Position numbers and translations under genes: made by a program. 64,000 bases of DNA, from contig CAJNDT010005879.1 of assembly GCA_905221615.1 (NCBI GenBank), positions 62,001-126,000 of the forward strand. The letters are read 5' to 3'. Shown piece after piece: positions 297 to 59,406 of the stretch. Numbering within the stretch: the first letter of the stretch is position 1; each line of letters opens with the position of its first letter. Below the pieces are notes generated by a model. It did not search any database. It worked only from the letters and a program-made list of their open reading frames with translations, and had not been told where the DNA came from. The DNA is from Symbiodinium sp. CCMP2592 (taxonomy: Eukaryota > Sar > Dinophyceae > Suessiales > Symbiodiniaceae).

Positions 297-950
297 GTGG
301 CGCATGCTGACTGTAGACCCGTGTACCACATGTACCCTGATGCCTCTTACGATGCATCAGGCGGCGGTTTAGACGACTTTAATGGCCTGTGCATAGGCTG
401 GTTCGGCGAGCCTGTTTCCCATGCTGTTCTTCAAGGCATCAATCCAGAAGGAAAGAACACCCTCATCTACGAGCTTGAAGTCTTGGCGGCTGTTCTTGGT
501 TGCGAGCTCTTGCTGTCCACTTTAAGGCCGTGCGACATTGTTCTTTTCACGGGCAGTGAAGCTGCCCTGTCGGCTTTGATATGCGGACGTTCCGATTGTG
601 CTTTTGTTCAGCATGCTCTAAACCGTCTTTTCGATCTGGAGGAGGATCGCAGCTTGAACGTTTGGTTTGAAAGAGTTTGCAGTGCGAACAACCCTGCAGA
701 CGCGCCTTCAACTGGCTCTTACCTGCTGCTTGATTTCCCAAGGCATCGCTCTTCTGTGAGCCGTGTGCTCTCCGAGTTCTGTGCCTCGTCGACTGGGGCC
801 CCGGCACTGGACTCTTCCGAGCTTCCCGCCGTGAAAAAGAAAGAGTGCTGCTTCCTCTTTTTGTTATTTGAATATATACTGGGTTTGATTAACATTTATA
901 TGCAAGCTTTCCTGCTTTATACTTTCGTTTTTACACACAACAAAACGTAA
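297..950 (+). pseudogene. RNase H-like fragment of a reverse-transcribing element
   Basis: The frame is open from about 273 to a TGA-free run ending at 950; the first in-frame codon used here is GTG, so the true start is unknown and no reverse transcriptase lies in frame upstream. The reading has the RNase H order expected at the end of DIRS/Ty3-type Pol: an Asp-rich first strand (DASYDASGGG), a helix with the conserved Glu (YELEVLAAVLG), a strand ending in TGSEAA, and a C-terminal NPAD. In active relatives the third acidic position is Asp where TGSEAA shows Gly, so the enzyme is probably dead. The last 50 residues are hydrophobic, AT-rich and lie in a repeated 3' segment, so they may be untranslated. 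The family resembles the DIRS-like element at 7.9-19 kb. Family assignment is inference from motifs. Confidence 0.55.
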
Positions 951-958
951 AGGATAAG
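801..958 (+). repeat. 3'-end direct repeat, copy 1
   Basis: This segment recurs at 1170-1327 in the same orientation with scattered substitutions. It covers the end of the RNase H frame, an AT-rich tract and a shared CACACAACAAAACGTA motif. It is probably the 3' terminal region of the retroelement, duplicated in tandem. Confidence 0.85.
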
Positions 959-1169
959 AAACACTTCGACCAGCGGTGGACGGGTCCTTTTCCTCAAATT
1001 TTGTGGGCAAGTTTCCCTTGTCATTTTATCTTTTCGATTTTATTTCGCATGTCATGGTTTTCCCATACATGTTCTCCTTTGGCATGTCTTTGAGAAAAGC
1101 TTTCTCCAGTCGCAATCTGTCCATCTATTTCGATGGTGGTTTCACACACTTTCTCTACCCTGCCGTTCC

Positions 1170-1327
1170 CCGGCATTGGACTCTTCCGAGCTTGCCACCG
1201 CGCAAAAGGAAGAGCGCTGCTTCTTGTTTTTATGATTTGCATATATACTGGGTTGGATTAACATTTATATGCAAGCTTTCTTGCTTTATACTTTTGTTTT
1301 TACACACAACAAAACGTAGAGGATAAG
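1170..1327 (+). repeat. 3'-end direct repeat, copy 2
   Basis: Second copy of the 801-958 segment, offset by about 369 bases. In this copy the reading frame is interrupted by a TGA at about 1230. Confidence 0.85.
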
Positions 1328-2304
1328 TCATTGACAGTTGCGCCCTACACTTCGTGGACTGTCATCGTGGGGCTGGGCAGATTTCTGCGCCGCTTGGGCG
1401 GAGTCCAACTCGAGTGCACATTGTGCCAAAAAACCATGCACGCCCTCATGAAGCGGCGCACCCTTTAGAAAGCATGGAGATGGAAAATTTATAGTTGAAT
1501 GTTGTACAGCGGTATAGATGCACCTGCAATTCCGAAATGCCAACAAAACAGCTGGTTTTTCGGGGACTGAAGATGTTGCTACCAAGATTGACAGCGGGAA
1601 TCCCCAACCTTGTAATCCGAGACGCGCTGCATTAGACTAGATACTTTGTTCCCAGTCAGCAGTTGAAAGGCAGCGAAAAACACATACGCTGTATTGCAGC
1701 TTTTCGGCACAGGCACGGAGGATGACCTAGTACAAAGCTCGTTCCTGGTCGCCATGACGTGCTTGACAAAGGCATCACAGACGCCTTTGCAACACTTTGC
1801 AACGTCTTTGGTTGAAGCGGAGGAGCTTGCAAAATTGTGGCTTGTTGCAATAGCCCTGTAATCTTAATGCAACAACGAACCCCATGATGACATAAGAATT
1901 TGCGCAAGTTAAAGATTACAAACTGCAACATGTTTTGATGCTCATGTGTAGACATTGATCCTACCGTGCATGTGTAATTACGGATCTTACAATTGCATGG
2001 TTTCACAATGCTGTGGACTTGCATGCTGAGGGATCCAACCATTCACCGGGTTGCCTGCTGCTGCAACCAACGCGCGTGATCCGACAGTTGTCATCAGTTT
2101 TGTTGCAATATCCTAGTCTTCAGAAGCTATCCAGTAGGAAACTGTGAGACTTCTGTTGTTGTTCTGTCATGTTTTGCCTGTAGGACACTGTCGTGGGTGG
2201 TTGTGGCAGCCCATCTCTTGTCCATCTGTTGGATGATTACCGATGCTCCATTTCTTCTTCACTGCTCCCGACAACATGATATCTTTTCAGTGTAAACAGA
2301 ATCA
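1328..2304. other. no gene recognised
   Basis: Both strands were read. Only short open frames without family motifs are present. The stretch separates retroelement debris from the TIR-like/ankyrin gene. Confidence 0.5.
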
Positions 2305-27245: not shown

Positions 27246-28373
27246 ACATCGCGCCATGCCGTAGTGCCCATACCGATCCCAAACATATTCTCTTGCAGGA
27301 CACAGGAGAATCTGCCACACAGGCCGTACCCAGTGCGAGCCACTTGGTGTGTTTCCGTTGTGATAACTACGAAGTGTCTGCCGGAGGAGGGAGTGCGAGC
27401 TGTTGGACAGGCATCGGCTACTGAAGCGGAGGCCGTTATGCTCTCCACGGTGAATTTTTTTCTGTGTGTGTGCAGCTTGCGCTCGGGTTTACTGCTTGTG
27501 CTTCGGCGTGAAACAGGAAGACACCCGGGCCGTGGGAGATTCCACGGTGAACCATGCTGAGGCTTGGTTTGCTGGACTTGAGGCATTTGCGTCCTCTCAC
27601 GACGTTGGTGGCATCTGAGAGGCCAACAAAGCAGAAGAGGACGTCAAGGTGCAGAGCTGGATCGATGTGTCGTTGTCTGTCACCACGAGAGTGCTTGTCT
27701 GCTGTATTCTGGCGTCAGGCAGCAAGTGCCGCGCTGGCACAACCTGCCGAGGCAGCTGAGTTGGTGTTAAGGAAGCTGGAGTTCCGAGCACCCGCCTATA
27801 CAACTGTTTTCTCTTGCAAGCGAGAGAGAGCAACCGATACAACACCCTGAACAAGGAGCATTCGTGAAGGGCAGCAGAGTGCGCTGAGTACCGTAAGCAG
27901 TGGTGTGTAGGTCTGCACAGAAGGGTCCGAGGCCTTAGAGGTATAGGGCCAGCTCCCGGAGCTGCTCCTTGAGGAACAGGCCTGCATGGAGCTCCAAGCC
28001 CTTTGAAGTTCCGCTGCTTTCAGGGCCCGGCTGATGCTTGATTGTCAGGAGTTTTGTTTATGTAGCAGCTGCCCTAAGTTGGAGGGGTTGATATGATGCC
28101 AGTGTGTCTGAATCAGTGATTGAGTAATGCGCACTCACGCGAGCAGGCTCAGGCTGTTGCCTCACGGCGTCCCACAAGAAATGCACTTGACAGTTATGTC
28201 TGCAATGCATGGCATTGGTACCTATAAGTTGCACAGCATTGGCCATGGCAGCGCAATCAGCGCAGCAGCAAGTAGTCAACATTCTACAGCCGGGACCTTA
28301 TCCGATTGTTGCCCGGGGACGTTCGCCGTATCTGGGGTTACTCGGGGCTGGGAGCTGACGCCAATGACTGCCA
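27246..28373. other. no gene resolved
   Basis: Probable introns and 3' part of the CNB-domain gene. Short frames only. Nothing identifiable on the minus strand. Confidence 0.4.
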
Positions 28374-28712
28374 ATGACCCTACTTAGGAGACTACAACGC
28401 GGCCGGAAATTGTTGTGGGCCGAACCTCAGAAAGCAGACGGCCTGATCAGGATGCAGTTCAGTGTGCCCTGGTCAACCGGAGAGCGCGCTTACTGTGGAG
28501 AATATTGTCGGACGACGAAGGAGGCCAAGGAAAGCGCGGCGAGAGCAATGCTAGACAACACGGAAACACCGATGCTACTGAACACATTGCCGCCGCCGAA
28601 CAGGCCAGTACAACAGTCCGACTTCGTGGAGCAGAAGCGGCAATTAGATGGAAGAACTAGTCTTGATGACGACGTCAGGTCCAAGCGGCAGAAGTGGCAG
28701 CAGTGGATGTAG
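28374..28712 (+). CDS. small frame with a dsRBD-like C-terminal signature
   Basis: Residues about 30-65 read as a strand (IRMQFSVPW), a turn with GEYCRTTKEAKESAARAML, then a charged tail (DDDVRSKRQKWQQW). The K-x-A-K-E-x-A-A-x-x-x-L helix is the hallmark of the second helix of double-stranded-RNA-binding domains, but the first helix and the conserved GPxH loop are not convincing. The frame may be the final exon of the gene upstream or an independent small gene. Moderate to low certainty. Confidence 0.3.
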   Translation: MTLLRRLQRGRKLLWAEPQKADGLIRMQFSVPWSTGERAYCGEYCRTTKEAKESAARAMLDNTETPMLLNTLPPPNRPVQQSDFVEQKRQLDGRTSLDDDVRSKRQKWQQWM

Positions 28713-29581
28713 ATTCTGGCATATTTGGCATGTAAACCGTGACACTGCCGGCTGACCTGTTCTTCTGAATTCATAGCGACTACATTGATGTGAACGGTTT
28801 CTTGAACGCCACAGACAGCATGTTGTGGTGTCGGCAGCTCGTGATTGCTTGAAGCGTGTGGCGAAGCACAGCCTCAAGACGGTATTTGTTCCAGCCTGCA
28901 GTGTTTGAAAGATGCTGCAAAAAGCGAAGAGGAAGCTGCAACTAGCCAGTCGAAAAATACTTGCTGCGCTTCAGTTCGTTTGCACCGACGCACCTATTGA
29001 AGACAGCATCGAACAACATTCCCACGTTTCCCGATCCGCTTGTGCTAAAGCGTTGCAGGTTTGTCGCATGGTGGCATGGAGGCAGTGAGCGACACGTTGG
29101 TGCTTGCGAAGCAAGTCCACCAACGTCTACGCTTACGCCATACTCGTAGCTGACTAGCCTAAACTTTCTGATTCCTCCGTCACTTTACAAGAACCGTGCA
29201 TGTTCTCCAGCTATGTGGAGTGAGTGGACTCAGCGAGTGCAGCGCATGCTGGCACAGCTAGCATCTTCATGTCAGGCACCGTCTCTCCACTTCGACTACG
29301 AGGCGCACGTGCCAAAGCAAGTTCCCGCACAATGCGAGTCAAGCGAATACAACGAATAAGTAGTTGGTCGGTGCTTGTGTGATGGGCTGAAGCATTTGCC
29401 TGAATGTCAGGCCCACTTACGTCTCAAAAGTTTCGAAAAACTCGTGTTGGCTGTCATGCGAGCGGCGTGTACCGGGGGAAAAACAGGTTGCAAAATGAAG
29501 TCTTAACCTTAAACTTTGCCGCTTCACATTGTTGTCCCGTCTCGCTATCTTAACGACAATAAACAAATATGCACGTAAATT
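28713..29581. other. no gene recognised
   Basis: Sequence becomes progressively more AT-rich toward 29500. No motif or repeat seen. Confidence 0.4.
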
Positions 29582-30030
29582 TTATTGGCCATCATCAACT
29601 TGAATGCGTTTTTCAACGCGAATGTGAAGCATATTGTTAGCATCTTTAGCGTTAGTGTTTATGTATAAAACAGAATATGGAGCATCATCTATCTTCTGTT
29701 GATACATATCGTATAAAGTTTTCTTATCAACTCATGCACTGTTTCCTTCTAGGAACCTATTAACTTCATTCATATTTTTCAACCTGAATATGAACAGGGC
29801 ACGAGCATATAGGCGAATTGCTGGTGCTATCACATTGTCTTCTTCAGTAGATAATATACATGAGATGGCATTATGACGCCGCATTGTGAATAAACCATGT
29901 AGACTGCTTGACTATCTTACAAATGTGAACAGATCTTTTTGTTTCTTCGTCTTGTGTTCATCAATAATTTTATGCGGTGTGTTTTTTGGCTCTTTAATGC
30001 TATAGGTGCTGTTGACGATAACCTGTGTCG
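29582..30030 (-). pseudogene. A32-like viral DNA-packaging ATPase, C-terminal remnant
   Basis: A single minus-strand frame of about 145 codons is interrupted only by TAG (29912-29914) and TGA (29732-29734) and ends at TAA (29582-29584). It shows the C-terminal order of A32-like packaging ATPases (FtsK/HerA superfamily): FTMRRHNAISCILSTE, APAIRLYARALFIFRL, KNMNEVNRFLE, DKKTLYDMYQQ, APYSVLYINTNAKD. The sensor position after ST is Glu instead of the usual Gln. Walker A and B motifs are absent, so the N-terminal half is missing. GC content is clearly lower than on either side, which suggests transfer from an AT-rich large DNA virus or a virus-like transposon. Dinoflagellates have known large DNA viruses, and A32-like sequences occur in their genomes. 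Identification is by motif order. Confidence 0.6.
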
Positions 30031-30349
30031 AGGCTGCCGCTCAGATCGATGGCACTTGTGCAATCGACCTCTGAGAAGCAGATCGGATTAAGTCTTGCAC
30101 CCCTTCATGCAACATCTGCTATGTCCCACATCACTTGGCCGCAGTGCCAGGACGCAGCACAGAGTGGGCGGGCCTCTTCGTTTGTCGCCCAGCCGTCGCT
30201 GGTCGGTCTTGTTTGCACATGGTCGTGCAGAATGTGCGGCATGCTTCGAGCGCTCAGAAGCAGAGTCACTTCAGGGAGGTTTTGGATATCTACTATCACA
30301 GCACTTTGGCATCGTCACCTGCGAGGACAGACTTGAATGTCTTGACCAG

Positions 30350-30529
30350 GTCTAGCTGCACGAGACCGCGCTGGGCAGACCTGTACGACGAAGCGCCAAT
30401 CTCGCAAGAGGCACGTCGCATTCGCCGAGCAATCCCAGAGTCAGAGTGAGAATGACAGCGAAGATGAGGGCGAGAGTCATGATGAAAGTGAGAGTGAGAG
30501 TGACGGTGAGAGTGAGAGCGAGGAATGAG
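30350..30529 (+). CDS. possible exon with acidic Ser/Glu tail
   Basis: One plus-strand frame reads a basic stretch (TKRQSRKRH) and then a Ser/Glu/Asp run (about 30 residues, ESESESDGESESEE) that stops at TGA 30527-30529. The underlying DNA is a GTGAGA-type repeat, so the tail may be only a microsatellite read in a favourable frame. No domain. Confidence 0.2.
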
Positions 30530-31635
30530 GGGTGTTCGATTCTACTAACAAGACAGATGCAGCAGTTTATCCCAAGCGACAGTCTGGAATGCGTAGCTGC
30601 TTCGTGCAGGTCATTGACCGATTCCTGCGCTGGCTCAATGGTCGCATCCTGAGAGTCATGCATTTGCCTTCTGCCCCCATACCTCATGTCTGTCAGAAAT
30701 CGGTTTGCTTACTTTCACGGTGGGCAGCCCGCTTAGCTTGAAAGTCCGTCTCGTGCGCCATGTCTCATGGTCTCAGCCGCAAGCTTTCGTTTGCTCCTCA
30801 CTTCGTTCCTTCCCTCCGGTGTAGCTCCTGCGGGCGATCTCGCACTTTCTATGGGTTTTTCGCAGAGGATCGCTTGCACCAAGACGGCCGCAGTGAAAGA
30901 CGTATACGTGCAGAGAAGCCCTTGAAAGACAGAGCCAGTTGCACACCTCAGGACAACCATGTCCTTGTTCGCAAGATCAAAACAGATAATTAGGGGCACA
31001 CAACACAGAACACTTGGAACAACAATTTTCAGTGTTTTCGAACAAGTCATAGGGTAGGCCATCAGACAACACCCGATCCATGTAGGCATTGCCTTCCAAC
31101 ATGAGTGGAAGCATGAAATGCAGCATCACTTTGCCAGACTTCGCGAGGCTGATCACAGGTGATACGGCCACAAACCGGCACCATGCCACATTTTGCTCAG
31201 GCGCACAAGACGGCTCAAACGTACAAGCGGCATTAAAAGCATGCATCTTTCGGCCGCGACTCTAGCAGACACAATTGTTTGCACTCAAACGAAATGGGCC
31301 TTGGCGCAATTAAGCCGGTTTTTCACAACCGGCACAGATTCCTGAGTTGTTTGTACCGCCTTCTGAGGAGCGGGGTGCTTTCATGCACAGCTCCCGTTTT
31401 GGGTTTCAGGCATCCGATTTAGCCTTCTGCGCACATGTGTTCAGTTTATTGGCGCTTGCTTGCTCCTTGTGCTACAAAAGTACACACCTTCGTTGGCCGC
31501 ACATGCGTACTCGTGAGTTGGCGCCCATGTTGAACCGTGACACGTGCACACATGCGCGCGCAATCTGCAGCTCTTCTAGAATGATTGTTCTACATAAGCT
31601 GTTGACAGTTGTGAATGCTCTCTCTCTACACATTG

Positions 31636-46323: not shown

Positions 46324-47878
46324 TAAGAATAGAGCTGAAAGGATTCTGCGATCTTCGCACATATGGATCCAGATTTCGTTGAATGGACGAGGCTCGCCGC
46401 AGAAGCTTGCTTGCCAAATTCCTGTTGTACTTGTCCATGTCAGAAGTACATATCGCTTGCGCTGTCGACGCTGACATGCACTCAGCAGCATGTCGGTCCC
46501 GTGATCGTACAGGCAAGGCTCGAATCCAAGGTCATCACCCAGTCTGTTTCGTTGCGGCGAAAGCAGTGCTTGACAGCTCGTGACCCTTCAGCATGTCCCG
46601 GCTTCTCTCTTTGATCACGGTCCTCACGGTGTGGATGTCACCAGACGTCGTCGGGGCATGTGACGCTGATGCGGTCATGACTGCAGCAACATGCATGCAA
46701 CAACTGTCACCGCCCACGGATGGGAATGTGGCAACCACTTGCCAATACGTGCAGGACTACATGGCTTGCTACCCAGGAGATTGCTGCACGTCAGCTGTTG
46801 AGACGGCGCTGGCCAGTTTTGCGCAAGCTCCTTTCAACTGCGCCGGAACGACATGTGGAGGTGGCAGCCCCGGTGACGGTGGCACGACAACAACAACCAC
46901 ATCAAGCACCCCATGGGTCGTCGGAGCCGGTCTGGTAAGCCAGGCTGCTGGCCCTTTCGGCTTATGTTCAGCGACCTTTCATGCCGGCGCTAATGTTGGC
47001 TGGACTGGAGCTGAGACCACGCAGGGGGGAATTCAGACCTGGGAGGAGTGCTGCAGCCTCTGCAACCCAGACGTCTGCTGCGGATTCGTCCTGATATCAG
47101 ACGGCGCATGCTTCCAAAAACTCGGACCCACTTGCGAAATGATTGGAGGTCCGCCGCAGACGGACTTGGCGCAGACCTCCAATGCGGAATCCATCAGTTT
47201 CTTCAGCTCGGCCACGATGCTGGTTGCACTACGGCTTGCCTCTTGAGTTGCACATATCGAAAGGTGAGCAAAGTAATCTCAGTTTTTCTGCAAAGGAATC
47301 CGGCGCATTGGCAAAGCCGATGTGGCCAACAGGCTTCCTGTGCGGGCTAGCGGCTAGACAGTATAAGAGTTTCATGAGGGCCTAAGGCCAAAGAGCTTGG
47401 GATTCCTCATCCTTTTATCAGCTAGCAGCTGGCATGTGAGTTTCATGACCCATCTGAAGAAGTGCGGGTTCAGAGCTTGTCTGATTGGGGGAAACAGCTG
47501 TGCCTGCTGTGTGACGTGCGGGCAGTCGCAGTGCTCCATCTCGTGCTGCATCCTCATGTCTTGGGATTCTAGGCCTAGTATGGCCCAGTGCCAGGCCCAG
47601 CGTCCTGGAGGATATCGCCAAGTGGATGCTAGTGGCTTATAGTTAGAGGGCTTGTTCTTTCGATGTTTTGTGGACGAAGTGCTTTCGGATCAGTTGATCA
47701 GTTCTTGCAACCTGGCATGTGCCACGTCTGATTTTGAGTCAAGGATGCCCTTCTCCGAAGAGACACTGACCCCTGCAAATCCGCAACGGGCAGTCGCAAG
47801 AACGCGCTGCGCAGCCCGTGCGCTTCGACGGCCCGCATCCTGTGTTAGATGCATTTTGTGCCTCTGATGCGGGAACCT
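46324..47878 (+). repeat. 1,555-bp tandem duplication, copy 1
   Basis: Starts AAGAATAGAGCTGAAAGGAT and is followed directly by copy 2. The unit includes a complete 217-codon gene with 5' and 3' flanks. Differences from copy 2 are few: an 8-base indel near 47695, one-base runs, and scattered substitutions outside the gene. Confidence 0.95.
46593..47246 (+). CDS. secreted Cys-rich protein, PAN-like segment, copy 1
   Basis: The 217-residue protein begins at the first ATG with a typical signal peptide (hydrophobic LLSLITVLTVW, likely cut after VVGA). A first Cys-rich module (about residues 23-90) has spaced cysteines including CC and CxxC-like pairs. A Gly/Thr-rich linker (GGTTTTTTSST) follows, then a second module with EECCSLCNPDVCCGF and GACFQKL, the layout of PAN/Apple-type domains. 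The C-terminus is hydrophobic (FFSSATMLVALRLAS), so a GPI anchor or membrane tether is possible. It is expected at the cell surface or outside the cell, binding carbohydrate or protein. The gene is intronless as read. The second copy encodes the same protein. Confidence 0.75.
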   Translation: MSRLLSLITVLTVWMSPDVVGACDADAVMTAATCMQQLSPPTDGNVATTCQYVQDYMACYPGDCCTSAVETALASFAQAPFNCAGTTCGGGSPGDGGTTTTTTSSTPWVVGAGLVSQAAGPFGLCSATFHAGANVGWTGAETTQGGIQTWEECCSLCNPDVCCGFVLISDGACFQKLGPTCEMIGGPPQTDLAQTSNAESISFFSSATMLVALRLAS

Positions 47879-49426
47879 TAAGAATAGAGCTGAAAGGATT
47901 CTGCGATCTTCGCACATATGGATCCAGATTTCGTTGAATGGACGAGGCTCGCCGCAGAAGCTTGCTTGCCAACTTCCTGTTGTACTTGTCCATGTCAGAA
48001 GTACATATCGCTTGCGCTGTCGAAGCTGACATGCACTCAGTAGCATGTCGGTCCCGTGATCGTACAGGCAAGGCTCGAATCCAAGGTCATCACCCAGTCT
48101 GTTTCGTTGCGGCGAAAGCAGTGCTTGACAGCTCGTGACCCTTCAGCATGTCCCGGCTTCTCTCTTTGATCACGGTCCTCACGGTGTGGATGTCACCAGA
48201 CGTCGTCGGGGCATGTGACGCTGATGCGGTCATGACTGCAGCAACATGCATGCAACAACTGTCACCGCCCACGGATGGGAATGTGGCAACCACTTGCCAA
48301 TACGTGCAGGACTACATGGCTTGCTACCCAGGAGATTGCTGCACGTCAGCTGTTGAGACGGCGCTGGCCAGTTTTGCGCAAGCTCCTTTCAACTGCGCCG
48401 GAACGACATGTGGAGGTGGCAGCCCCGGTGACGGTGGCACGACAACAACAACCACATCAAGCACCCCATGGGTCGTCGGAGCCGGTCTGGTAAGCCAGGC
48501 TGCTGGCCCTTTCGGCTTATGTTCAGCGACCTTTCATGCCGGCGCTAATGTTGGCTGGACTGGAGCTGAGACCACGCAGGGGGGAATTCAGACCTGGGAG
48601 GAGTGCTGCAGCCTCTGCAACCCAGACGTCTGCTGCGGATTCGTCCTGATATCAGACGGCGCATGCTTCCAAAAACTCGGACCCACTTGCGAAATGATTG
48701 GAGGTCCGCCGCAGACGGACTTGGCGCAGACCTCCAATGCGGAATCCATCAGTTTCTTCAGCTCGGCCACGATGCTGGTTGCACTACGGCTTGCCTCTTG
48801 AGTTGCACATATCGAAAGGTGAGCAAAGTAATCTCAGTTTTCTGCAAAGGAATCCGGCGCATTGGCAAAGCCGATGTGGCCAACAGGCTTCCTGTGCGGG
48901 CTAGCGGCTAGACAGTATAAGAGTTTCATGAGGGCCTAAGGCCAAAGGGCTTGGGATTCCTCATCCTTTTATCAGCTAGCAGCTAGCATGTGAGTTTCAT
49001 GACCCATCTGAAGAAGTGTGGGTTCAGAGCTTGTCTGATTGGGGGAAACAGCTGTGCCTGCTGTGTGACGTGCGGGCAGTCGCAGTGCTCCATCTCGTGC
49101 TGCATCCTCATGTCTTGGGATTCTAGGCCTAGTATGGCCCAGTGCCAGGCCCAGCGTCCTGGAGGATATCGCCAAGTGGATGCTAGTGGCTTATAATTAG
49201 AGGGCTTGTTCTTTCGATGTTTTGTGGACGAAGTGCTTTCGGATCAGTTCTTGCAACCTGGCATGTGCCACGTCTGATTTTGAGTCAAGGATGCCCTTCT
49301 CCGAAGAGACACTGACCCCTGCAAATCCGCAACGGGCAGTCGCAAGAACGCGCTGCGCAGCCCGTGCGCTTCGACGGCCCGCATCCTGTGTTAGATGCAT
49401 TTGTGCCTCTGATGTGGGAACCTATC
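47879..49426 (+). repeat. 1.55-kb tandem duplication, copy 2
   Basis: Repeats copy 1 nearly base for base and ends at GTGGGAACC, where copy 1 runs into copy 2. Confidence 0.95.
48148..48801 (+). CDS. secreted Cys-rich protein, PAN-like segment, copy 2
   Basis: Encodes a protein identical in all 217 residues to that of 46593-47246, exactly 1,555 bases downstream. Signal peptide, two Cys-rich modules, Thr-rich linker and hydrophobic C-terminus are all kept. Flanking bases differ slightly more than the coding part, which suggests a recent duplication or gene conversion, with both copies probably functional. Confidence 0.75.
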   Translation: MSRLLSLITVLTVWMSPDVVGACDADAVMTAATCMQQLSPPTDGNVATTCQYVQDYMACYPGDCCTSAVETALASFAQAPFNCAGTTCGGGSPGDGGTTTTTTSSTPWVVGAGLVSQAAGPFGLCSATFHAGANVGWTGAETTQGGIQTWEECCSLCNPDVCCGFVLISDGACFQKLGPTCEMIGGPPQTDLAQTSNAESISFFSSATMLVALRLAS

Positions 49427-57300: not shown

Positions 57301-59406
57301 TCGTGTGCGGGTTGAGGTTTACAGCGCTTGGCCAAGCATTGCAACGACCTCGACTCATTCCGACATGGCCTCTCGGTATGTCTTCCTGGGGCGACGACTG
57401 GGACACGCCCTACCGTCTGCCGTGTAAGCTTCTGACGCAAGTGTATCCATATCATCACAGTTGCAGGTCAGAGAAGGATCGACGACCCGCCCACGTTTTT
57501 CCGATCCGACTGCGAGTGCCCATCGTCGGGCGGCTGCCCGAGGCACTGGCGCAGTGCGTTGTCCGTCGACGGCGTGCGCCCTCTCCTGTGCCGCCCGTTG
57601 GCGAACAGCTGCAATCATACTCTTGGGACTTCGTCTTTGCTCGCATCATGGCGATCGCCGAGACGAAAGGTAACGAGGTACTGAACGAGCTCGGTGTTGT
57701 TTTGTTGCTTTTTTGCTCGCACTTCCTGGCCGACAGGCAGCACGCAGGTTAGCCGCGACCGGCGCCAGCCACACGCAGGGGGAGCGGGTTGTGCACGACA
57801 GATACCTATACCACATGTTTCGACGATCGCCATCGGCCCGCAGACGTCACGCTGCCGACCAGTGCTTGCAGGAGCTAAGTCCACTGGTGCGGTCGGGTTG
57901 CGCTCCGAACTGCAGCTGCGGCAGCGGCGCGGGATGCGAAGAAGCTCGTTGGTCCGGCCGAGCCGCGTAGCGTGTCCGTATCACGGGGGATTGTGCGACC
58001 CTCGATTCCGCATCATGTTGACCGTTGCTTGCTTTGGCAGTCCATGGCAGTTACCGCCAAACCTTGGGTCAGGTGCAAGTCAGGGTGGAGACCACCTTTG
58101 ATTCGGTCTCTCACAGAGCGTTGTTTGCTTTGCCCGTAGCCAGCGTCGTGCGCAGACCCAGACCAGGTGCAAACAAGGGACCGGAGGCATTACTTTCACC
58201 TGCGAGCAGCTAACTATTTCATACGAATATTGCAGCCTTTCATCTCCTAGGACATGAGCAGCACTTGTGACCGCTTGCAGTTATGAATCCTTTGTTATTT
58301 GGTCTGCACGTCGTGATGTGCTCGTCTCTCGAACATTCTCTGTGTATCCACGCCAAACATCCCGGACACTGTGCTTTACAGCTTTAACTATGTTTGTAAT
58401 GTTTTTTTGGATGCTCGCCCTGCCTTGGTGCAGCCTTTCCACGCCGACGCGGCGCAGCCGCGAGCCAATTGCTTGCAATGCCACATGATATGTGTTTGTG
58501 CTTGTGACAGCACTGATTTTGTACTGACATGATGAGTTGTTCTTGTGTGTATGTTGTCACGGATTCCATTAGTGTCCTCCTTCCGTATGACAGAATTATA
58601 TCATTCACACATGTTACATACATGTTATTACCTCCATGAAAAGATCCGCATGTGCTATATGTGCGTGCAGTCTTTGTAGTTACGCAGCACGCATATAAGT
58701 TTGGCTCTGGTCATGTCTGCACCCATTGTTTATGTGTAAACATGTCTCTTCCTTGTTTTTTTCCGGTGCTTCCGCATCTGCACATGTGTGCAGTGCTGCC
58801 GATATTCCCAAAGATCTGTAAGCAGGCATATTACGAATATTACGATGTACACATAAAGATATGTAGACATGGAGCCCCCAGAACCAGCCCTGGGTGGCGG
58901 CTCCTCGAACGGGAGCAGGGGTTCGCAGGGCTCGCAAACGGATCTCGCATGCCCGCGCAGCCCCTGGGGTCCTCCCCAGCTGCCGCGTTTGTGTTATGCT
59001 GCGAGCCAACTACCTCAGCAGCACACCACGCAGGCAATCCATGTAAGCGAATCGGATCGGCGCACGCGCCGCTGGAGGACGCACTGCACCTCATCCAGAA
59101 AACTGCCGGCAAAAAATAATACTACTGCAGATGCTTTACTGTGGTTTCCAAGGTTCCAAAGTGCATTTTCAATGCATGGCAAGTGCATTCAAAAGCTGCT
59201 TCAGCTTTGCCAGTGTTCCTCGCACGATTCCCGAAAGAGTCGAGGTCTTCAAGCCCACGACCAACTCCAAATGCATTTCCCGAAGAATCCTCAACGCGAT
59301 TGGCCCGGGATTTCAACAAATCTGGGGTTCATGCCGTTCCTAAACCCAAAATTTGTGTTGAAAAGCTGAAGGGTTCGGTTTAGGCTCAGGTAGTGACGTC
59401 TTCATT
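57301..59406. other. possible 5' part of the LINE, unresolved
   Basis: GC-rich patches at 57450-57960 resemble retroelement coding composition, but neither an endonuclease domain nor another motif was recognised. 58000-58850 is ordinary AT-richer spacer. Confidence 0.3.

What the first reader, a model, noticed from the sequence alone, without database searches (positions are those of the whole stretch)
29582..30030. AT-rich relic of an A32-like viral packaging ATPase
One minus-strand frame with only two stops carries the C-terminal motif series of A32-like (FtsK/HerA) packaging ATPases in a patch clearly lower in GC than its surroundings. This points to an endogenised large DNA virus or virus-like transposon in a dinoflagellate. 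The sensor Gln is replaced by Glu and the Walker half is missing.
Basis: partly seen in the sequence, partly recalled or inferred. Interest (0 to 1): 0.85.

Follow-up and report, generated by a model that had tools for sequence, protein, structure and literature searches.

The report
Dead scrap of dinoflagellate Polinton-like virus
A half-kilobase, decayed piece of the DNA-packaging gene of a small integrating virus sits in the DNA of a dinoflagellate whose genome also holds many better-preserved copies of that virus, a kind already described.

Summary
Minus-strand 29509-30006 is homologous to packaging-ATPase genes at 39 other scored places of the same 1.1-Gb dinoflagellate genome (118 candidates; nearest 82% identical). 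The two stop-free pieces match a profile of those ATPases at E 3.6e-23 and 3.5e-17; 900 shuffled pieces reach 0.63 at best. The patch is the AT-richest 498 bp of the window.

The source is not a large DNA virus. Fuller copies lie in AT-rich elements (two measured: 20.0 and 22.3 kb) with a Pox_A32-type ATPase, a type B polymerase, an rve-like integrase, an S74 fibre protein and a candidate capsid gene; two of four examined have terminal inverted repeats with 5-bp target duplications. They fit Polinton-like viruses, already reported from dinoflagellates.

The scrap is dead: Walker A half missing, a 39-nt deletion over Walker B, a frameshift, two stops, and differences spread over all codon positions. 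It includes DNA past the stop codon, so element DNA is its likely source. It is an ordinary new member of a known kind, of use as a likely real fossil where published work suspects assembly errors.

The parts
29509..30006 (-). whole relic: 3' part of a Polinton-like packaging-ATPase gene plus 73 bp beyond its stop codon
   Evidence: blastn against own-genome copies, longest alignment 29509-30006 to L008/L022; GC 0.355
29735..29911 (-). 59-aa stop-free piece with the motifs that follow Walker B; Glu at about 29843-29845 where aligned intact copies have Gln
   Evidence: profile E 3.6e-23, 80% identity to L008; alignments
29585..29731 (-). 49-aa stop-free piece, C-terminal end of the ATPase
   Evidence: profile E 3.5e-17, 81% identity to L003 over 47 residues
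29912..29914 (-). in-frame stop codon
29732..29734 (-). in-frame stop codon
29926..29927 (-). junction of a 39-nt deletion over the Walker B stretch
   Evidence: alignment of relic with other copies
29991..29992 (-). site of a 1-nt frameshift relative to other copies
   Evidence: reading passes from the frame to that
29582..29584 (-). terminal stop codon of the gene
29509..29581 (-). element DNA beyond the gene, shared with the C39 copy
   Evidence: 45 of 73 aligned bases identical to L008
30008..30700 (.). flank upstream of the relic's gene: only a repeat-like stretch (about 30437-30539) matched elsewhere in the genome; that search skips common words, so rarity is not proved
   Evidence: tandem repeat

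Best explanation
The stretch is a non-functional fossil of the packaging-ATPase gene of a Polinton-like virus (PLV) that integrated into this dinoflagellate genome. Shown: homology to many copies in the same genome, some in elements with TIRs and target duplications; loss of Walker A and Walker B, a frameshift and two stops; substitutions spread over codon positions as in a pseudogene; DNA continuing past the stop codon. Inferred: the intact protein pumps viral DNA into a capsid in the manner of A32/FtsK-HerA ATPases; the relic came from element DNA, and either the rest was lost by deletion at this site or only a fragment was ever inserted. The relic itself has no ATPase activity.
For: 39 other scored DNA places of 118 candidates, nearest 82%; profile E 3.6e-23 and 3.5e-17 against 0.63 for the best shuffle. 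148 scored ATPase protein matches of 675 candidates; 62 of the 148 have a match of the candidate capsid gene within 10 kb. Intact copy: Pox_A32 7.3e-13, PHROG 'terminase large subunit' 1e-15. Elements: DNA_pol_B_2 7.6e-10 in one ORF, rve 6.3e-7 to 1.1e-5 in three own-genome ORFs (under Pfam's cut-off), 6.7e-8 in the metagenomic relative (over it), Peptidase_S74 to 8.6e-13. TIRs 347 bp identical (C39) and 246 bp 91% (C5058), with 5-bp duplications CATAA and GAAAG. At sites where L008 and L002 agree the relic differs at 25/127, 14/133, 24/111 of codon positions 1, 2, 3; intact L003 at 6/141, 2/146, 31/122. Longest terminal branch of 27 sequences, 0.377. IMG/VR contig L062 holds a similar gene set: ATPase 51%, polymerase pieces mostly 48-62%, integrase 34-45%, capsid candidate 29-30%.
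Against: Neither relic piece alone hits Pfam. The tree position of the relic has support 59 only. Second codon positions changed about half as often as first and third, so part of its divergence may predate decay. TIRs were found in 2 of 4 regions examined. Only one of the four long polymerase-region ORFs scanned (L014:3936-6566) hits DNA_pol_B_2; L010:3041-5293, L010:5297-6808 and L062's 1299-aa ORF do not. The capsid candidate has no convincing Pfam or PDB match and its predicted model was useless (pLDDT 36), so its fold is not shown. 86 of the 148 ATPase matches have no scored capsid match within 10 kb (both lists are capped). The left-flank search did not complete.
Confidence: 0.95

Rival explanations
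1. Remnant of an endogenised large DNA virus (NCLDV/poxvirus-type A32 gene).
For: The intact copies hit Pfam Pox_A32 at 7.3e-13, a name taken from poxviruses.
Against: Copies sit in elements of about 20-22 kb with type B polymerase, rve-like integrase and TIRs; the nearest relative found outside the genome is a 17.4-kb contig of similar gene set. No tree with NCLDV references was made.
Confidence: 0.03
2. Broken by assembly error: a whole element lies here and was collapsed or mis-sequenced. Bellas et al. 2023 (PMC10120064, passages read) argue that many stop codons in such copies are artefacts.
For: That paper's corrected and re-sequenced examples from other protists.
Against: The relic differs from its nearest copies by 18% in the aligned core to 25% over all aligned columns, over all codon positions, which polishing errors would hardly give; one flank had no other full match in the genome (a search that skips common words).
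Confidence: 0.02
3. Retrocopy of a viral transcript, 5'-truncated, inserted by a host retroelement.
For: 5' truncation with the gene's 3' end kept is what retrocopies show.
Against: It continues 73 bp past the stop in alignment with the C39 copy (45 of 73 bases identical), shows no run of 8 or more A at its 3' edge, and no direct repeat of 9 nt or more lies right at both edges; the nearest is a 10-nt pair with one mismatch, 29495-29504 and 30087-30096, 81 bp outside one edge. A transcript running on past the stop is not excluded.
Confidence: 0.05
4. Retained for a host purpose, for example as a small-RNA source against active PLVs.
For: Better-preserved relatives are present in the same genome, so targets exist.
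Against: No RNA data; substitutions show no clear constraint apart from a lower rate at second positions.
Confidence: 0.03

Closest known systems
Dinoflagellate 'Dino group' EVEs (Bellas et al. 2023, PMC10120064, passages read) and the dinoflagellate polintons of S. kawagutii and P. glacialis named in PMC12721341
   Same: Dinoflagellate genome; insertions of roughly 15-30 kb with low GC, capsid gene, polymerase B, rve integrase, TIRs; high copy number
   Different: This is a 0.5-kb remnant of one gene; membership of the parents in their MCP cluster could not be tested, as no reference sequences were at hand. Target duplications here are 5 bp in two elements; 6 bp is typical for rve integrases (PMC12220804, passages read)
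OmPLV of Oxyrrhis marina (PMC12721341; abstract, Results and Discussion read)
   Same: Endogenous PLV in a dinoflagellate, A32-type ATPase, low GC, fragmented copies
   Different: OmPLV has a tyrosine recombinase, no target duplication and a helicase-polymerase fusion; the elements here have an rve-like integrase and 5-bp duplications, and no such fusion was seen among the ORFs scanned
IMGVR_UViG_3300028392_002905 (L062)
   Same: Similar gene set; ATPase 51% identical, polymerase pieces mostly 48-62%
   Different: Metagenomic contig; polymerase region in one 1299-aa frame; a GIY-YIG gene
Poxvirus A32 and STIV B204 packaging ATPases
   Same: Pox_A32 profile match of intact copies; weak match to B204 (E 0.03-0.09)
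   Different: Other virus groups; weak, family-level similarity only

Membership tests
Polinton-like virus (parent elements) | A32/FtsK-HerA-type packaging ATPase | tested here: met
   L003 Pox_A32 7.3e-13; L062 5.8e-11
Polinton-like virus (parent elements) | type B (protein-primed) DNA polymerase | tested here: met
   L014:3936-6566 DNA_pol_B_2 7.6e-10; three further long ORFs of the same region or its relative did not hit. Protein priming not tested
Polinton-like virus (parent elements) | rve-type integrase (or tyrosine recombinase) | tested here: met
   three own-genome ORFs rve 6.3e-7, 7.4e-7, 1.1e-5, all under Pfam's cut-off; relative L062 6.7e-8, over it
Polinton-like virus (parent elements) | double-jelly-roll major capsid protein | tested here: inconclusive
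   conserved 535-541-aa ORF, 95 match rows (82 of 538 candidates scored), homologous to an L062 ORF with a weak Capsid_N hit, E 0.028; no convincing Pfam or PDB hit of its own; L062 model pLDDT 36
Polinton-like virus (parent elements) | terminal inverted repeats | tested here: met
   2 of 4 regions: C39 347 bp 100%, C5058 246 bp 91%; none found for the elements at C4334 and C3027
Polinton-like virus (parent elements) | 5-6 bp target-site duplication | tested here: met
   CATAA and GAAAG, exactly 5 bp, in the 2 elements with TIRs
Dino-group MCP clade | MCP clusters with published Dino-group MCPs | not testable with these tools
   no reference sequences of that group were found in the collections searched
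NCLDV (large DNA virus) | large genome with NCLDV-specific genes | tested here: not met
   elements about 20-22 kb; no such gene among the 27 sequences scanned, which include both relic pieces and are not all ORFs of the elements
Functional packaging ATPase (the relic itself) | Walker A and Walker B | tested here: not met
   homology starts downstream of Walker A; 39-nt deletion over Walker B

The most novel reading that the evidence does not exclude
The locus is one of a large hidden class of sub-kilobase PLV scraps in dinoflagellate DNA that are real and old, and that the host keeps as sources of RNA for silencing the related elements still present in the same genome.
Probability: 0.03. Interest if true: 0.75.

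Novelty: new member of a known kind. Interest (0 to 1): 0.3.

Why it matters
Integrated Polinton-like viruses in dinoflagellates are known, and published work warns that broken copies may be assembly errors (PMC10120064, passages read). This scrap, 18-25% diverged from its nearest copies with changes in all codon positions, is good evidence that some are genuine fossils. The same genome also holds at least one copy whose 347-bp TIRs are identical, hence young, so insertions of different age can be compared within one genome.

Tried and rejected
Rejected: large DNA virus as source (element size and gene set); assembly error (divergence pattern); retrocopy (DNA past the stop aligns with element DNA). 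Direct Pfam search of the relic's pieces gave nothing; the same pieces match a profile built from genome relatives. Close-relative search of IMG/VR with one ATPase found nothing; alignment A1 found 2 loci of 88 candidate stretches; the capsid alignment A2 found 0 of 50; searches with L062's own capsid candidate and polymerase found only L062's contig again. The phage collection had no match. NCBIfam: 5 of 7 proteins without a hit; the integrase matched an IS481 transposase model at 4.9e-8, far below its cut-off, and one other ORF had a chance-level match (0.079). Structure prediction of the L062 capsid candidate from one sequence was unusable, so no fold search was made. Ten ORFs of the window outside the relic had no Pfam match at E 0.01. 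The relic's left flank in the genome: asked six times, never answered.

Full report
Observation. Two stop-free pieces, 29735-29911 and 29585-29731, match a profile of 11 ATPases from the same genome with E 3.6e-23 and 3.5e-17. Of 900 shuffled pieces the best reached 0.63, and of 1083 stop-to-stop pieces of the window (40 aa or more) the best unrelated one 5.7. A third piece, 29915-30001, scores weakly (0.039, same call). GC is 0.355 against 0.54 for the window, and of 1271 stepped 498-bp windows the lowest begins at 29501.

Host. The genome holding the window has 1.098 Gb in 5383 contigs.

Relatives in the genome. DNA of the relic finds 40 scored places of 118 candidates, itself and 39 others, the nearest at 82% identity. 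The ATPase protein of one copy finds 148 scored places of 675 candidates; 23 of the 148 rows list an in-frame stop (counted by reading). Sixty-two of the 148 have a match of the candidate capsid gene within 10 kb and 86 have none; both lists are capped, so these are lower bounds. The relic's contig is in neither list, so scraps as decayed as this one are under-counted.

What the parent is. Four regions were fetched. Each holds an AT-rich stretch (mostly 0.25-0.42 GC, with some richer inserts) inside host DNA near 0.45-0.6. ORFs found in one or more of them are the ATPase (Pox_A32 7.3e-13; PHROG 'terminase large subunit' 1e-15), a type B polymerase (PF03175, 7.6e-10 in one ORF; two other polymerase-region ORFs gave no such hit), an rve-like integrase (6.3e-7 to 1.1e-5 in three ORFs, under Pfam's cut-off), a fibre-like protein with Peptidase_S74 (8.6e-13 and 8.3e-12) and a conserved 535-541-aa ORF that I take for the capsid protein. 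Two of the four have terminal inverted repeats: C39, 347 bp, identical, span 67891-90232; C5058, 246 bp, 91%, span 312253-332259. Both repeats begin AGTTAG and are bordered by exactly 5-bp direct repeats, CATAA and GAAAG. No TIR was found for the elements at C4334 or C3027. S74 proteins and 5-6 bp duplications are usual in Polinton-like viruses (PMC12220804, passages read).

A relative outside the genome. With alignment A1, IMG/VR gave two loci. L062, from a 17.4-kb contig, has a similar gene set: ATPase 51%, polymerase pieces mostly 48-62% (one N-terminal piece 36%), integrase 34-45%, capsid candidate 29-30% over its length. Its integrase passes Pfam's rve cut-off (6.7e-8), its capsid candidate has a weak Capsid_N match (0.028), and its polymerase ORF has no DNA_pol_B_2 match. 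L063 matched only with its ATPase, at about 28%.

State of the relic. Homology starts after the Walker A half. A 39-nt gap covers the Walker B stretch, a 1-nt gap shifts the frame near 29991, two codons are stops, and Glu stands where aligned intact copies have Gln (the role of that Gln is recalled, not tested). At sites where L008 and L002 agree, the relic differs at 25/127, 14/133 and 24/111 of first, second and third positions; intact L003 differs at 6/141, 2/146 and 31/122. Three other reference pairs give the relic 19/117 to 25/121, 14/134 to 15/134 and 11/88 to 24/93. Seven further copies set against L002/L008, and L002 set against L008/L043, all have their highest rate at third positions; the decaying copies L040, L042 and L045, set against L008/L033, still lean to third positions but less (7/142, 12/139, 17/142) (all). 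So selection on the relic has been weak or absent for most of its separate history; the lower rate at second positions may be a trace of time before decay. In a tree of 27 sequences its terminal branch, 0.377, is the longest, and its position has support 59. Changes from A/T to G/C outnumber the reverse 43 to 16 (first comparison), towards the host's composition; L003, L046 and L045 lean the same way, L002 and L004 do not.

How it got there. The match continues 73 bp past the stop codon, 45 of 73 bases identical to the C39 copy; a short piece of a neighbouring ORF of that copy also aligns there (13 aa, E 0.004). So the source was most likely element DNA. The upstream flank (30008-30700) had no other match in the genome apart from a repeat-like stretch, by a search that skips very common words. 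The downstream flank could not be checked: six requests did not complete. No TIR-end 6-mer (AGTTAG or CTAACT) occurs in window 28001-31500. Whether a whole element was later deleted down to 0.5 kb, or a fragment was inserted, cannot be told.

What is known. Bellas et al. 2023 (PMC10120064, passages read) report capsid genes of such elements in dinoflagellates, 2,535 in Polarella glacialis, with most dinoflagellate ones in a 'Dino group', and caution that many stop codons in such copies are assembly artefacts. Haro et al. 2025 (PMC12721341, abstract, Results and Discussion read) describe another PLV in Oxyrrhis and refer to dinoflagellate polintons. The Karenia paper (PMC13037468, passages read) reports three partial PLV genomes in lysate metagenomes. 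Literature searches were made; in their listings I saw no report on this locus, but they were not aimed at it and the library holds only part of the literature.

Verdict.

Noticed in passing
window 46584-47243 and 48139-48798 (+): Two 220-aa ORFs, identical over all 660 bases, 1555 bp apart; the near-identical stretch runs about 46367-47244. No Pfam match for the first at E 0.01. Looks like a recent tandem gene duplication.
   Followed up: partly
L021:7817-10000 and L003:2668-3333: Phage-type tail-fibre homology (Peptidase_S74; PHROGs tail-fibre families to 7.7e-16 for L003) in the parent elements, as reported for other Polinton-like viruses.
   Followed up: partly
L062: Metagenomic contig of 17.4 kb with a gene set like the dinoflagellate elements and a single 1299-aa polymerase-region frame that Pfam's DNA_pol_B_2 does not recognise at E 0.5.
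   Followed up: partly
L010:3041-5293, L014:3936-6566, L062:2235-6131: An Endonuclease_7-like stretch (1.8e-5, 0.0011, 0.0012) lies within the polymerase-region ORFs; only the first passes Pfam's cut-off.
   Followed up: no
G000 C5058:316152-318841: The two halves of the capsid candidate lie at 316152-316937 (+) and 318044-318841 (-), in opposite orientation, which suggests an internal inversion in this copy.
   Followed up: no
window 801-1398: A second AT-rich dip (498-bp windows from 801, 851 and 901 at GC 0.398-0.436) without similarity to the fetched elements.
   Followed up: partly
window 58875-58942: A 68-bp stretch matches host DNA at L009:566-633 at 78%; probably a dispersed host repeat.
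   Followed up: no
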